Position numbers and translations under genes: made by a program | Notes under the pieces: generated by a model | What the model saw: the letters and a program-made list of their open reading frames with translations, nothing else | Told to the model about the DNA's origin: nothing | The model's database searches: none | NCBI GenBank assembly: GCA_029706075.1 | Contig: JAINUG010000037.1 | Coordinates: 6,815,666 to 6,879,665, forward strand | DNA length: 64,000 bases | Source: Aldrovandia affinis | Taxonomy: Eukaryota > Chordata > Actinopteri > Notacanthiformes > Halosauridae | Reading direction: 5' to 3' | Shown: piece after piece, positions 9,216 through 57,830 of the stretch | How the letters are laid out: every line of letters begins with the position of its first letter | Numbering within the stretch: position 1 is the stretch's first letter

Positions 9216-9466
9216 ATGGGAATCAGGGCTGGCAGTGTAGTGTAATGGTTAGGGAGCTGGGCTTGTAACTCAGAGGTTGCAGGTTCAATTCCCAGGTGGG
9301 CACTGCTGTTGTACCCTTGAGCAAGGTACTTAACCTGAATTGCTTCAGTAAAAAAAAAAATACTCCAGCTGTATAAATGGATGTGTAAAGAAATGTAAAC
9401 TGTGTAAGTCGCTCTGGATAAGAGCGTCTGCTAAATGCCTAAAATGTAAATGTAAATGTAATGTAT
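9216..9466 (+). mobile_element. tRNA-derived SINE with UnaL2-type 3' tail
   Basis: A nearly complete SINE. The 5' part is tRNA-like, with an A-box-like segment around AGTGTAATGG (about 9235) and a B-box-like GGTTCAATTCC (about 9279). The body carries CCTTGAGCAAGGTAC and an A-run at 9350-9360. The 3' tail at 9403-9445 holds the stem-loop GCTCT-GGATA-AGAGC (9411-9425), then CTGCTAAATG and a TGTAAA/TGTAA repeat end. Established knowledge: this hairpin is the 3' recognition structure shared by eel UnaL2 and its partner SINEs, so the SINE was probably moved by an L2-clade LINE. GTATCGG occurs both at 9209-9215 and just after the tail (from about 9463), a possible target duplication. A second copy lies at 42551-42750. 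Confidence 0.88.
9411..9425 (+). other. GGATA stem-loop in SINE tail
   Basis: A perfect 5-bp stem, GCTCT/AGAGC, closing a GGATA loop. It matches the hairpin known to be recognised by the UnaL2-type LINE reverse transcriptase. It is the best-preserved of the six copies in the window. Confidence 0.85.
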
Positions 9467-9930
9467 CGGAATTGTCTTTAGACAATTGATGTCAGCTAAG
9501 AGAGCCCAGCTGAGACGGACCATAAACAGCGACTACGATGGCGCCCCCTTCAGGCCTACCAGGACACAAGCCGGGGAGGTGCCATAAACAGCGACTACGA
9601 TGGCGCCCCCTTCAGGCCTACCAGGACACAAGCCGGGGAGGTGCCATAAAGAGCATATGGCCGATCCGGCAAGCCGGTGGGTAACAATACCCACTGTGCC
9701 AGGATGTGTCACAGCGGCGCCACCTCTGCAGGACACCTTTGTCGGCGACATCAAATGAAGGGGAATAGACCACAGGATACACCTCTCTCATGCATCACCA
9801 ATGCAAGGAAGTGGGTGTCAACCACATGACACACCCCTCACCTAAACAACCAAGCAGCGCTGGCCATCACCGGATATGGGGGAGCTGACATGACGGAGGT
9901 AGACTCACGTGGGGTAGGTGGACACAAGTT
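9467..9930. other. GC-rich insertion-like sequence, family unknown
   Basis: Richer in GC and CpG than both neighbours, beginning just after the SINE tail, and containing the 62-bp tandem duplication described separately. It looks like part of an older insertion, but I found no terminal repeats, LTR ends or coding similarity. The 73-codon minus-strand frame arises partly from the tandem duplication and shows no domain. Confidence 0.35.
9521..9650. repeat. Two-copy 62-bp tandem duplication
   Basis: The block beginning CATAAACAGCGACTACGATG at 9521 recurs at 9583 after 62 bases. A third partial copy (CATAAAGAGC) begins at 9645. The two full units are essentially identical, so the duplication is recent. 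Confidence 0.9.
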
Positions 9931-12364: not shown

Positions 12365-12762
12365 TACAGGTAACTGCCAAAATAAAGGAAACACTAACAT
12401 AAAGTGTCTTAATAGGGCACTGGGCCATCACAAGCCACCAGAACATCTTCAGTGCACCTGGGCATACATTCTATTGTACTCTGTACTCTACTGTACTCTA
12501 CACCATTCCTCAACAAGAAATCCCATCATTTGGTGTTTTTTTGATGGTGGTGGTGGAAAATGCCATCACAGGTGCCGCTCCAGAATCTCCCATAAGTGTT
12601 CAATTGGGTTGAGATTTGGTCTGAGATGGCATAATGTTTTACATCGTTTTCATGCTCATCAAACCATTCAGTGACCACTCGTGCCCTGTGGATCGGGGCA
12701 TTGTCATCCCGGAAGAGATCACTCCGATCAGGATAGAAATTCTTCACCATAGGGGGAACTGT
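12365..12762 (-). mobile_element. Truncated Tc1-family transposon (3' end portion)
   Basis: The right-hand TIR of a Tc1 element lies at 12367-12395, reading CAGGTAACTGCCAAAATAAA on the + strand and preceded by TA, the Tc1 target dinucleotide. Inside it, on the minus strand, is the C-terminal part of the transposase. The element stops near 12760, so the transposase N-terminus and the other TIR are missing. The sequence closely resembles the Tc1 families abundant in teleosts, including salmonids. A different piece of a similar element is at 22711-23756. Confidence 0.85.
12526..12750 (-). pseudogene. Tc1 transposase C-terminal fragment, broken
   Basis: The minus-strand frame starts MVKNFYPDRSDLFRDDNAPI and continues with HRARVVTEWFDEHE. 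The DDNAPIH segment holds the second catalytic aspartate of the DDE triad. Downstream the frame shifts: the expected WPSQSPDLNPIEHLW stretch with the catalytic glutamate is disrupted by a small deletion, and the NPIEHLW codons fall in another frame. The N-terminal helix-turn-helix domains and the first aspartate are absent. It cannot encode an active enzyme. Confidence 0.85.
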
Positions 12763-13670
12763 ATGTGTGGATCCCGTGACTTGTTATAAATGCACCATTA
12801 GATTTTGTTTGTGTGAACTAGCCATACATGGTGGGCAGCAGTGTGTCCCTTGGTATGACTTTAGTTATACATTTTCTGCAGGTGAATGCTATAGGTGAGT
12901 GAGGGTATTCTGGATGAACTTCCATTGGTTTTTATCCTTTGTATGTGGCATATTAAACTTCGGTCAGCCGAAAGCAACTTTGGCCATAGGTACTGTATGT
13001 CTACAAATGTAACTGCAGTACAGTGCATGTCTAATGATGTTAAAGGTAGGTTGGGTAAGGGGTGTTTATAAAATCTGTGTGTTTTGTCTGCCAGTAAAAA
13101 TAAAATGTTTGAGCAATTGAACCAAATGGCAAATCATCTTCATTTGTTGTAAAATAACTATAAAGACATCACATTTTCATTTGTTTGTCCGTCATGCACT
13201 GTGCAGTTTCACAGAAAACACTTATTCCGTCTTCCTCCCATTAGCCAGGTAGATTTCAAGCTGAACCTAACCCTCTTTCCAGCTGCTTTTCTGTGTTTCT
13301 CAACCCAGATGGTTAACCTGTTAATCTGTCATATAATTAGACTAATTTATTGTAGAATATAGACTTAGAATTTAATCCCAAATATGTGGTACACATTGAA
13401 AAGCCTCCTTAGGGGGAGTTTTGTTATTCAACAAACACTCAAAGCATTTGACACATACTTGTTCAGACTCTGGGCCAATCAGACTAAAATGCTTTCATTG
13501 ATTTTACAATGGGTTACATGAAAACCATCCATTAGCGCTTATGTTTAATGACAGGATTTTAACCCTTGTTCTACCGATCTATTGCTTTCAGCTACACCCT
13601 GAGTTTAAGGCAATCAACAATGGCAATGCCTTTTAACACTTTCTAAAGAGAGTGAAACTGTCCTACCTAA
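12763..13670. other. AT-rich noncoding stretch, nothing recognised
   Basis: No gene, structural RNA or transposon end is recognisable. Open frames are very short. Confidence 0.5.
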
Positions 13671-13679
13671 AGTACACTT

Positions 13680-15075
13680 GATTTACTAGGAGATCTATGA
13701 CTGACTGGAGTGCTATTGGATAGTGTGTGTTGAGGGGCTGATGCCCAATCATATTCTAAGCCCCTCTTGCTGCAACATCTGCTGTCAATTCGGGAGAGTG
13801 TAGACAAGCACGCACTGCACTCCCAAACACGTGATGTCAGCTGACACTTCTTTTCACACTGCAATCTACAAGTTAAGCCTGTACAGACATGAATTGGCCG
13901 CCCACAGTCTGCCCACAGTGTGCACAGCTTTATTCCAGCAGACTGTGGGTGCCCAATGGGCCAGCAGGGGTCACTGCTGTACAACGGGACAGGGACAACC
14001 CAGCCGGCTGAATCCCTCCCTCCCTGGGCGATGCTACTGCCAATTTTGCATCACGCTACGGGGCTGCTGGCCACAGTCGGCACTGGCATGGTCTAGATTT
14101 GATACCAGACCGTGGGGCTCATCCACACACTAGAACAGTGCCTTAACAGGATGCAGACCGTGAGGCTCATCCACACACTAGAACAGTGCCTTAACAGGAT
14201 GCAGACCGTGAGGCTCATCCACACACTAGAACAGTGCCTTAACAGGATGCAGACCGTGGGGCTCATCCACACACTAGAACAGTGCCTTAACAGGATGCAG
14301 ACCGCGGGGCTCATCCACACACTAGAACAGTGCCTTAACAGGATGCAGACCGTGGGGCTCATCCACACACTAGAACAGTGCCTTAACAGGATGCAGACCA
14401 TGGGGCTCATCCACACACTAGAACAGTGCCTTAACAGGATGCAGACCGTGGGGCTCATCCACACACTAGAACAGTGCCTTAACAGGATGCAGACCGCGGG
14501 GCTCATCCACACACTAGAACAGTGCCTTAACAGGATGCAGACCGTGGGGCTCATCCACACACTAGAACAGTGCCTTAACAGGATGCAGACTGTGGGGCTC
14601 ATCCACACACTAGAACAGTGCCTTAACAGGATGCAGACCGTGGGGCTCATCCACACACTAGAACAGTGCCTTAACAGGATGCAGACCGCAGGGCTCATCC
14701 ACACACTAGAACAGTGCCTTAACAGGATGCAGACCGCGGGGCTCATCCACACACTAGAACAGTGCCTTAACAGGATGCAGACCGTGGGGCTCATCCACAC
14801 ACTAGAACAGTGCCTTAACAGGATGCAGACCGCGGGGCTCATCCACACACTAGAACAGTGCCTTAACAGGATGCAGACCATGGGGCTCATCCACACACTA
14901 GAACAGTGCCTTAACAGGATGCAGACTGTGGGGCTCATCCACACACTAGAACAGTGCCTTAACAGGATGCAGACCGCGGGGCTCATCCACACACTAGAAC
15001 AGTGCCTTAACAGGATGCAGACCGCAGGGCTCATCCACACACTGCAGCCGATGCGCCACCCAGCAGCCTTCCATT
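13680..15075 (-). mobile_element. Reverse-oriented SINE-like repeat carrying an internal minisatellite
   Basis: The body at about 13680-14100 includes a CCCTCCCTGGGCG block (about 14020) and a CCAATTTTGCATCACGCTAC segment. Read on the minus strand, it ends in a tRNA-like head: a B-box-like GGTATCAAATC (complement of about 14096-14106) and, after the tandem array, an A-box-like segment at about 15045-15065 (GCGCCACCCAGCAGCC on +). The layout matches a common teleost tRNA-SINE in which AGTGCCTTAA and GCGCCAC(T/C)C lie in the reversed head. A diverged single-unit relative is at 20541-20690. The head has been interrupted by amplification of a 48-bp segment. Family assignment is from memory of the layout. 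Confidence 0.6.
14108..15043. repeat. 48-bp minisatellite, 19 full units plus a half unit
   Basis: Nineteen 48-bp units run from 14108 to 15019, followed by a 24-base partial unit to 15043. Nearly all positions are invariant. The differences sit in the first nine bases of each unit, which read GACCGCGGG, GACCGTGGG, GACCATGGG, GACTGTGGG, GACCGCAGG or GACCGTGAG. Because 48 is a multiple of three and the unit lacks stops in one frame on each strand, open frames of 322 (+) and 315 (-) codons with a 16-residue period result. These frames are products of the repeat and not evidence of a protein. Confidence 0.97.
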
Positions 15076-19060: not shown

Positions 19061-20540
19061 TGCCAGAGCTATCGATCAGTAAGCTACAGTCCAATCGTTG
19101 TCGCCACAAAACCTGCGGTAGCAAAGCAAAGCAAAAACACAAAAGGTAGCAAAGCGCTGTATTCTGTCATCTTTTCAAAAGTGGCCACGATTTGAAGAAC
19201 CTGTTTCTTTAAAACAAATAAATAAATAACATAAAAAAACACTTTTTCTCATTTAACTATTTTGGGAATTAGTTATGTCCTCAGTGGAGCGGATAGTATG
19301 TTGGCCCACTCTTTTAGGAATAAATGTGCTTCAAGGCTAGCTAATCACAAAGAGGGCTTTTTAAAATACAGTCATCACTCTTGATGGTCACCAGGAAACA
19401 ATTATATGGGAATGAGATTATGATAATTAAACAAAAAAGAAAATCTATGAGCATTGTTTTGTTGCTTTGATTATTGTGGGTCTGGCTATACTTTGTGTGT
19501 CGCTGTGCATTAGATTACAAGTCAAATGGCAGAAGTGATCTCAACCAGACTGCAGATACAGTAGGTTCTCAGCATGGAGGGGAAGTGAGTGATTAGGGTG
19601 AATCCCCTCCATAATGTGGTTGAGAGTCAGTGGGTTTACTGACGTTAACCCCTCTAAAAGTGGAATCTAATGGTAGCATATCAAGCCCAGGCCACACCCG
19701 AATACCCCCCTCGTTTTAAATCGCTAGCTTTACCACCTCACCCCATACCATCACGTCTCATTCTTCTTCTTTAATTGTACCCTCACAATGTACAATACAA
19801 ATGTTGCTGTAGTCTAATTGGCTTCATGTTATCTTCATCCGACAAGGAAACATTTGAAAAATGTCAATAAACTGTAACTGCGAGTAGCAATGACCAAGGG
19901 CCCAAGCATGCATAGAATACATCCATCATTCATTACATAGTTCAGTTATATAATTTTTTTTGTAAAACCAGGAAAATTTCAATATTGCATCTGCACAATG
20001 TGACAGATAAACACCAAATTTAGTATGGTGACATGTCCCTTTGACCTATGAAATATGACATTTCTTCAATTGAATGCGGTTTAGTTATAATTCAAATTAA
20101 ACTACTTCAAAATTGATTGGCACATGGTGGTCATTTTAAAAAAATATATTATCTTCTCCTTTGTTATTAAAAGCACACTCCAGCAGTCCTACATACAAAA
20201 TATAATGCTTTCAAATTTGTGATTCTACTTGAGCATGTTAAACTATATTTGTATACACATGTGATATGTATATTTATTTGTAAATTTAATAAATTAAATG
20301 GCTTGTGATGGCCATATTGTTTTGTGAGGGAACTATTCTTTTGCAGAATAGATAAAACTTTGAACCAGGATTTACACATATCCCTTTTTTGCACCTCTCA
20401 GAATTATGGTCCATGTGTTGAGTTGAAGGCACGGTGCTTCACAGCTGAGCTGCACAGTCACTGCATCAGAGGACTACAATTCATGCACAATGTATGCATA
20501 CAATAACAATGAGATGAGGACAGACCCAGTGACAGAACCC
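19061..20540. other. AT-rich noncoding stretch
   Basis: No gene recognised. A short inverted repeat, ATGGAGGGG / CCCCTCCAT with a loop of about 20 bases, lies at about 19575-19611. Remaining sequence is AT-rich, with no repeat family identified. Confidence 0.5.
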
Positions 20541-20690
20541 TCCCTCCCTGGGTGAAACTATGACCGATTGATCATCCCGCAAAGATACACAGGCACGGTC
20601 AGGATTTCATGGGGCAGATCACTACACTCGAGCCCAGTGTCTTAGCAGCACGAGTCACCTGGCAGCCCTGGCTGCAGGTGTTTTTAAGCA
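20541..20690 (-). mobile_element. Diverged SINE-like repeat related to 13.7-15.1 kb
   Basis: Shares the ordered blocks CCCTCCCTGGG, CACGGTCAGGATTTCATGGG, AGTGTCTTAGCAGC and CACCTGGCAGCCCTGG with the element at 13680-15075, with a single copy of the segment that is expanded there. It supports the view that the 48-bp array arose inside this family's tRNA-like head. Confidence 0.45.
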
Positions 20691-42550: not shown

Positions 42551-42752
42551 GGGCGGCAGTGTAGTATAATGGTTAGGGAACTGGACTTGTAACTCAGAGG
42601 TTGCTGTTTCGATTCTCAGGTGGGGCACTGCCGTGGTACCCTTGAGCAAGGTCTTTAACATGAATTGCTTCAGTAAAATATCCAGCTTAATAAATGGATT
42701 GTATGTAAACTGTGTGCGTCGCTCTGCATAAGAGCGTCAGGTAAAATGTACT
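42551..42752 (+). mobile_element. tRNA-derived SINE, second copy
   Basis: Same family and orientation as the copy at 9216-9466: GGCAGTGTAGTATAATGG, then TAACTCAGAGGTTGC, B-box-like GTTTCGATTCTC, CCTTGAGCAAGG, AATTGCTTCAGTAAAA and the tail. The 3' hairpin at 42721-42735 keeps its GCTCT/AGAGC stem, but its loop is GCATA instead of GGATA. The tail is shorter, without the CTGCTAAATG word, and ends GGTAAAATGTA. It is more diverged than the first copy, so probably older. Confidence 0.85.
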
Positions 42753-53640: not shown

Positions 53641-54002
53641 GAGGCGGCACGGTGGTGCAGTGGATAGCACTGTTGCCTCACAGCAAGAAGGTCTCGGTTC
53701 GAATCCAGGCCGGGGCCTTTCTGTGTGGAGTTTGCATGTTCTCCCCGTGTCGCGTGGGTTTCCTCCGGTAATCCGGTTTCTTCCCACAGTCCAAAGACAT
53801 GCACGTTAGGCTAATTGGAGAGTCTAAATTGCCCGTAGGTATGAGTGTGTGAGTGAATGGTGTATGTAGTGCCCTGCGATGGATTGGCGACCTGTCCAGG
53901 GTGTATTCCTGCCTCTCGCCCCAATGCATGCTGGGATAGGCTCCAGCCCCCCCGTGACCCTAACTAGGAATAAGCGGCTGAAGATGAGATGAGATGAGAT
54001 GA
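53641..54002 (+). mobile_element. V-SINE/DANA-type SINE, complete
   Basis: Full-length SINE with a tRNA-like head: A-box-like TGGTGCAGTGG (about 53653) and B-box GGTTCGAATCC (about 53696). The conserved middle follows: GTGTGGAGTTTGCATGTTCT, CGTGGGTTTCCTCCGG and CCACAGTCCAAAGACATGCA. The 3' body has CCCTGCGATGGATTGGCGAC, CTGGGATAGGCTCCAGC and a (GATGA)n tail. An exact 13-bp target duplication, TGATTGGGGTCAG, flanks it at 53629-53641 and 54003-54015 (its last base may coincide with the first SINE base). This layout is widespread in teleosts. Intact ends suggest a fairly young insertion. A hAT element sits directly in the right-hand duplication. Confidence 0.9.
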
Positions 54003-57755: not shown

Positions 57756-57830
57756 ACATTGTACCGCATGTTGCAAGTCGCTCTGGATAAGAGCGTCTGC
57801 AAAATACCAAAAAATTTCTAATGTAATGTA
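57755..57830 (+). mobile_element. Orphan SINE/LINE 3' tail
   Basis: Contains AAGTCGCTCTGGATAAGAGC, GTCTGCAAAATACC and TCTAATGTAATGTA. The hairpin GCTCT-GGATA-AGAGC is perfect at 57780-57794. No SINE head is visible upstream, so this is a severely 5'-truncated copy. Confidence 0.75.

What the first reader, a model, noticed from the sequence alone, without database searches (positions are those of the whole stretch)
14108..15043. Minisatellite whose unit differences sit almost only at two CpG sites
Nineteen 48-bp units are identical outside their first nine bases. Inside them the variants CGCG, CGTG, CATG, TGTG and CGCA are what C-to-T deamination on either strand would make from an ancestral ACCGCGGG. 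The only other change is a G-to-A in units 2 and 3. This suggests a recently expanded or homogenised array that is methylated in the germ line and decaying only at CpG, a natural clock and methylation record. Unit order shows mixed variants, so expansion and deamination overlapped in time.
Basis: partly seen in the sequence, partly recalled or inferred. Interest (0 to 1): 0.7.

Follow-up and report, generated by a model that had tools for sequence, protein, structure and literature searches.

The report
Minisatellite grown inside a fish SINE
A short stretch inside what looks like an old mobile element (probably in a fish genome) has been copied about twenty times in a row, and its few differences are better explained by a handful of mutations being copied around than by a methylation clock, so it is a fairly ordinary repeat.

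Summary
At 14106-15043 there are 19 full 48-bp units and a 26-bp matching stretch of a 20th, without indels, differing only at five adjacent positions. Six types occur and five mutations explain them. Independent CpG decay of an identical CGCG array would need about 19 CpG events against one non-CpG change. At a 5-20-fold CpG excess, the published vertebrate range, P is 4e-4 or less. A 13:2 strand asymmetry (p = 0.007) and unequal loss of the two CpGs (p = 0.001) also argue against it. So it is not a clock: a few mutations, mostly at CpG, were spread by tandem duplication or conversion. The packing of changes at the CpGs stays mildly surprising under either model (about 1% at 10-fold). New here: exactly one unit fits between the flanks as the interior of a tRNA-type SINE head on the minus strand, between A-box-like and B-box-like motifs, with a SINE-like body downstream. 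This rests on a fish SINE recalled from memory, and default tRNA detection is negative. Closest known: SINE-derived satellites of reptiles (PMC10702118). Germ-line methylation could not be tested.

The parts
14106..15043 (-). Tandem array: 19 full 48-bp units and the 26-bp matching part of a 20th
   Evidence: strand given for the SINE reading
14107..15018 (-). The same 19 full units in the SINE phase (minus-strand unit runs from GCATC to GGTCT)
   Evidence: 19 x 48 = 912 bases
15019..15054 (-). Terminal 20th unit, 36 bp, 12 bp shorter than a full unit, type CGCA
15048..15058 (-). A-box-like motif TGGCGCATCGG, straddling the outer border of the array
   Evidence: consensus recalled
14096..14106 (-). 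B-box-like motif GGTATCAAATC (fits the recalled consensus with one extra base), directly abutting unit 1; lies in a 7-bp stem
   Evidence: consensus recalled
15060..15068 (-). 5' arm of a 9-bp inverted repeat bracketing the putative head
14062..14070 (-). 3' arm of the same inverted repeat
14014..14080 (-). SINE-body-like stretch, the best match in the window to a recalled fish SINE (66.7% over 69 columns, E = 0.009)

Best explanation
A non-coding minisatellite that arose inside an old tRNA-derived SINE copy lying on the minus strand, probably in a fish genome. A 48-bp piece of the SINE head, from inside its A box to just before its B box, was duplicated in tandem and grown to about 20 copies by unequal exchange or slippage. 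A few point mutations, mostly CpG transitions, arose in single units and were copied to other units by further duplication or conversion, giving interspersed variants as in classical minisatellites. It has no evident function; the stretched distance between A and B motifs (about 950 bp) should have silenced the SINE promoter. Shown: the array, the five-site variation, and the fit of exactly one unit between the flanks. Inferred: SINE identity, host group, order of events, spread by exchange, promoter loss.
For: Six types need only five mutations (types and counts). Recurrent decay is rejected at realistic CpG excess: P(1 or fewer non-CpG events) = 8e-17, 3e-8 and 4e-4 at 5-, 10- and 20-fold. 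The vertebrate CpG>T to CpH>T ratio is 5-20-fold, fish low (PMC12994199 passages); nine-spined stickleback per-site rates outside CpG islands give about 4.8-fold (PMC10503787 passages). In simulation, the pattern with one dominant site came up only with turnover (0.3% of runs at 20-fold, 0.9% at 50-fold) and in 0 of 1500 of each best-fitting star setting. SINE reading: right flank + one unit + left flank aligns colinearly with a recalled fish tRNA-SINE (score 20.5; best of 500 shuffles 16.5), the head alone reached by 8 of 1000 shuffles; the recalled sequence's best place in the window is here; 9-bp inverted arms bracket the head. Fish: two UnaL2 LINE 3' ends (host range recalled).
Against: ARAGORN with default settings finds 0 tRNAs in three joined heads; its relaxed calls mean nothing, since 75 of 100 shuffles also give one. 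Rfam gives no tRNA match in 13700-14260 at E up to 10, but that stretch lacks the A-box flank. No convincing target-site duplication and no second copy in the window beyond short weak matches. A+B-box pairs are not rare: 12 in the window by the loose pattern, 3 of 300 shuffled heads. A block repeat at lag 7 (p = 0.013) does not survive correction for 14 lags (p = 0.15). At 10-fold CpG excess neither model makes '4 CpG bases and at most 1 other site' likely (about 1%), and with the dominant site added the turnover model too gave 0 of 1500 at 5- and 10-fold.
Confidence: 0.68

Rival explanations
1. One reading: an array homogenised to CGCG, methylated in the germ line, then decaying independently in each unit at CpG only, so that unit variants record time.
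For: Four of the five variable sites are the four bases of two CpGs, and their changes are all of the deamination type if CGCG is ancestral. The window is CpG-depleted with TpG/CpA excess.
Against: Needs about 19 CpG events against 1 non-CpG event: P = 4e-4 at 20-fold excess and 0.09 only at 50-fold. C8T:G9A is 13:2 (p = 0.007) although deamination on either strand should be equal. CpG 1 is lost in 4 of 20 units and CpG 2 in 15 of 20 (p = 0.001).
Confidence: 0.07
2. Local hypermutation or conversion tract: the five adjacent variable bases are a hot stretch (recombination joint or hairpin edge) regardless of CpG, and CGTG is ancestral.
For: The five variable sites are adjacent (3e-5 for random placement, ignoring CpG), including the non-CpG site G10. 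CGTG is commonest and is unit 1.
Against: Four of five sites are CpG bases in at least one type, which explains most of the clustering without a new process. No mechanism or second locus was found.
Confidence: 0.12
3. The array is a plain minisatellite in unique DNA; the SINE likeness is chance.
For: tRNA detection at default settings is negative; no convincing target-site duplication and no second copy in the window.
Against: One unit fits exactly between the flanks. The recalled SINE scores 20.5 on the joined sequence, above 500 of 500 shuffles, and above 300 of 300 shuffles and 289 or 290 sampled window pieces for each of two other joins.
Confidence: 0.2
4. A coding repeat: 16-residue repeats in a gene.
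For: 48 is a multiple of 3 and one frame on each strand is open (322 and 315 aa). Whole-protein Pfam scores pass the curated cut-off for 13 of 15 listed families on the + frame and 1 of 1 on the - frame.
Against: Those Pfam families are unrelated to each other; for 14 of the 15 and for the one on the - frame no single stretch passes, and the one that does (Fibrinogen_BP) is far below its cut-off: sums over repeats. No match in solved structures for the + frame. About 2.8 of six frames of a random 48-bp unit would be open by chance (hand calculation). In the + frame the variants change residues (V, A, M; G to R).
Confidence: 0.02

Closest known systems
SINE-derived satellites (sSats) of squamate reptiles, PMC10702118 (abstract, passages and Discussion read)
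   Same: Tandem units cut from part of a tRNA-related SINE, with SINE sequence continuing at the ends of the array; in snakes a 67-nt unit from the head including box B and part of the body.
   Different: Here the unit is 48 bp, from the head only and without box B; one locus; probably a fish; SINE family not established.
Alu-derived tandem repeats of primates (PMC3389668, passages read)
   Same: In-place expansion of a transposable-element segment, e.g. 17 repeats of 52 bp from AluJo.
   Different: Other SINE family and host.
Minisatellites with interspersed variant repeats (MVR loci such as human MS32; recalled)
   Same: A few point variants of the unit interspersed along the array.
   Different: Here nearly all variant sites sit at the CpGs of the unit; allele diversity unknown.

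Membership tests
Minisatellite | Tandem head-to-tail units of about 10-100 bp | tested here: met
   48 bp x 19.5
Minisatellite | Length or variant polymorphism between individuals | not testable with these tools
   one assembly only; the genome search did not complete
SINE-derived satellite | Unit is part of a SINE and SINE sequence continues at the array ends | tested here: inconclusive
   colinear fit to a recalled SINE, score 20.5 against 16.5 for the best of 500 shuffles; no dispersed copies available
tRNA-derived SINE | tRNA-like head recognised by tRNA models | tested here: not met
   ARAGORN default 0 in three joined heads; no tRNA in Rfam for 13700-14260, which holds only part of the head. 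So it is not filed as a proven member
tRNA-derived SINE | A and B boxes | tested here: inconclusive
   pair present by a loose pattern; 3 of 300 shuffled heads also have one, 12 pairs in the window
tRNA-derived SINE | Target-site duplication | tested here: inconclusive
   six probes with up to 2 mismatches in 12601-14060 gave one match, a 10-mer of chance quality; the 3' end of the element is not defined
CpG-decay clock array | Independent, strand-symmetric CpG transitions per unit | tested here: not met
   13:2 asymmetry p = 0.007; CpG 1 vs CpG 2 p = 0.001; event ratio
CpG-decay clock array | Germ-line methylation of the array | not testable with these tools
   no methylation data; only CpG o/e 0.52 of the window

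The most novel reading that the evidence does not exclude
The array's CpGs mutate far more often (50-fold or more) than other bases, above the 5-20-fold known for vertebrates, because the tandem array is itself heavily methylated, so that exchange and CpG mutation together write a readable history of the array.
Probability: 0.1. Interest if true: 0.5.

Novelty: new member of a known kind. Interest (0 to 1): 0.2.

Why it matters
It gives a clear warning about reading repeat-unit variants as a methylation clock: the same pattern follows from a few mutations copied along the array. If the SINE reading holds, it adds a candidate from a probable fish, with both SINE flanks kept, to the SINE-derived tandem repeats whose authors said it is uncertain whether they are restricted to squamates (PMC10702118 Discussion).

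Tried and rejected
Coding repeat: no support beyond repeat-summed Pfam scores. tRNA or other known RNA at the array: negative at default or gathering settings. Other copies of unit or flank in the window: none for the unit; for the flank only short weak matches, best 82.5% over 40 columns at 20518-20555, E = 0.03; none in the self-comparison. Collections: 0 matches in viral contigs for four patterns and ten loci for one short degenerate pattern, not read; 0 in genome contigs for two patterns. These collections hold viruses and prokaryotes, so this says little about fish. Metagenome contigs, phages, plasmids and E. coli records were not searched. Four sequence strings of a recalled SINE in the paper library: 0 papers. 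Higher-order block repeat of units: lag 7 not significant after correction. The 62-bp repeat at 9520 as a control for CpG decay: its two copies are identical, so no information. Literature: six searches listed 7 of 7, 5 of 5, 12 of 78, 1 of 1, 10 of 148 and 7 of 7 papers; in the titles and abstract beginnings I saw no CpG-decay minisatellite and no SINE-born minisatellite of fish. Most listed papers were not opened, and subscription papers are not held. The passages seen on three-spined stickleback (PMC12218844) report raised mutation rates at CpG outside CpG islands, not significant in one test there; not used for numbers.

Full report
The array is real. It holds 19 complete 48-bp units and the first 26 bp of a 20th at 14106-15043, with no indels. 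A 45-bp pattern of the unit matches 19 places in the 64-kb window, all within the array, and shuffles give 0. The window carries two UnaL2 LINE 3' elements and a CpG o/e of 0.52, which suggests a fish (host range of UnaL2 recalled). The species was not identified, and the tool for the host genome did not answer in seven tries.

What the variants say. Six types occur: CGTG 7, CGTG with A10 2, CGCG 5, CATG 2, TGTG 2, CGCA 2 of 20 units. Each is one step from CGTG or CGCG, so five mutations explain all. If instead an identical CGCG array had decayed unit by unit, 19 CpG events would be needed, while only one change was seen among 858 non-CpG bases. The expected number of non-CpG events is 40.8, 20.4 and 10.2 at 5-, 10- and 20-fold CpG excess, with P(1 or fewer) of 8e-17, 3e-8 and 4e-4; at 50-fold it is 0.09. 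The published CpG>T to CpH>T ratio is 5-20-fold in vertebrates, with fish low (PMC12994199, passages); this ratio is not defined exactly as mine, which sets a CpG base against any other base. The nine-spined stickleback per-site rates outside CpG islands, 1.85e-8 for CpG and 3.83e-9 for non-CpG, are closer to mine and give 4.8-fold (PMC10503787, passages). Strand symmetry also fails (13:2, p = 0.007), and so does equality of the two CpGs (4 against 15 of 20 lost, p = 0.001). These two tests treat units as independent, which is exactly the model under test.

So the variants were most likely spread by duplication or conversion. A small simulation (1500 runs per setting, the best of four mutation rates reported) found the summary 'all four CpG bases variable, at most one other site' in 0.2, 1.1, 5.8 and 20% of star runs and 0.1, 0.9, 5.5 and 16% of turnover runs at 5-, 10-, 20- and 50-fold. 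This summary alone does not separate the two models. The added feature of one dominant site occurred only with turnover, in 0.3% at 20-fold and 0.9% at 50-fold; it came up in 0 of 1500 for turnover at 5- and 10-fold, and in 0 of 1500 of each reported star setting. Cautions: no model with modest CpG excess makes the whole pattern likely; the rate was chosen on the first summary only; and the star model's best rate was the lowest of its grid. In the unique-event count, 4 or more of 5 at CpG bases has P = 0.04, 0.16 and 0.42 at 5-, 10- and 20-fold. The concentration on CpG is thus mildly surprising, not extraordinary.

The ancestral type is open. CGTG is commonest, is carried by unit 1, and has the smallest summed distance to the units (15 against 21 for CGCG); if it is ancestral, position 8 changed T to C. 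CGCG as ancestor explains the clustering at CpG better. The unit order shows no proven block structure: the best lag is 7 (5 of 13 pairs equal, p = 0.013), but p = 0.15 after allowing for 14 lags.

Where the unit comes from. Read on the minus strand, the right flank has TGGCGCATCGG (A-box-like) and the left flank GGTATCAAATC (B-box-like, one extra base), abutting unit 1. The flanks joined through exactly one unit give a continuous sequence that aligns with a recalled fish tRNA-SINE from the head's first bases into the body (score 20.5; mean 9.5 and maximum 16.5 in 500 shuffles); the head part alone scores 9.0, reached by 8 of 1000 shuffles. With two other joins the same score stands against maxima of 17.5 and 16.5 in 300 shuffles each and 16.0 in 289 and 290 window pieces. 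The body part is the best place for the recalled head piece in the whole window (E = 0.009; next 0.48). A 9-bp perfect inverted repeat (15060-15068 and 14062-14070) brackets the head, and GGTCTGG/CTAGACC forms a 7-bp stem like a T arm.

Against this, ARAGORN at default settings sees no tRNA in three joined forms; relaxed settings do give calls, but 75 of 100 shuffles give one too. Rfam shows no tRNA in 13700-14260, a stretch that holds only part of the head. A second recalled stretch (the tail) does not match, no convincing target-site duplication was found, and the A/B pattern is not rare (12 pairs in the window, 3 of 300 shuffled heads). The SINE reading is therefore likely, not proven; the relative is from memory and was confirmed by no database.

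If it is right, the 48-bp unit runs from inside the A box to just before the B box, and the terminal unit at 15019-15054 lacks 12 bp. The distance between A and B motifs grew from 52 to 952 bp, which should disable the promoter (inference).

Comparison. SINE-derived tandem repeats are known in squamates: arrays of SINE pieces, mostly with SINE sequence continuing at one end and, in minor variants, at both or neither. The authors call it uncertain whether they are restricted to squamates (PMC10702118, abstract, passages and Discussion). Tandem repeats from Alu are known too (PMC3389668, passages). The present array works like these. It is a new member of a known kind, with an unusual but small-number concentration of variants at CpG.

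Noticed in passing
9391-9444 and 57760-57813 (+): Two UnaL2 LINE 3' elements (Rfam RF00436); 9226-9435 is 82% like 42551-42745.
   Followed up: partly
9520-9654: A 62-bp unit, two identical copies plus a remnant, shortly downstream of the UnaL2 3' end at 9391-9444.
   Followed up: partly
12529-12783 (-): Open frame that reads like a piece of a Tc1/mariner transposase (recalled; no Pfam match).
   Followed up: partly
13893-13957: 20-nt inverted repeat (90%) whose arms contain GCAGACTGTGGG, the same 12 letters as in the TGTG unit type.
   Followed up: no
53646-53717 (+): ARAGORN reports a tRNA of undetermined type; not confirmed by Rfam at gathering score.
   Followed up: no
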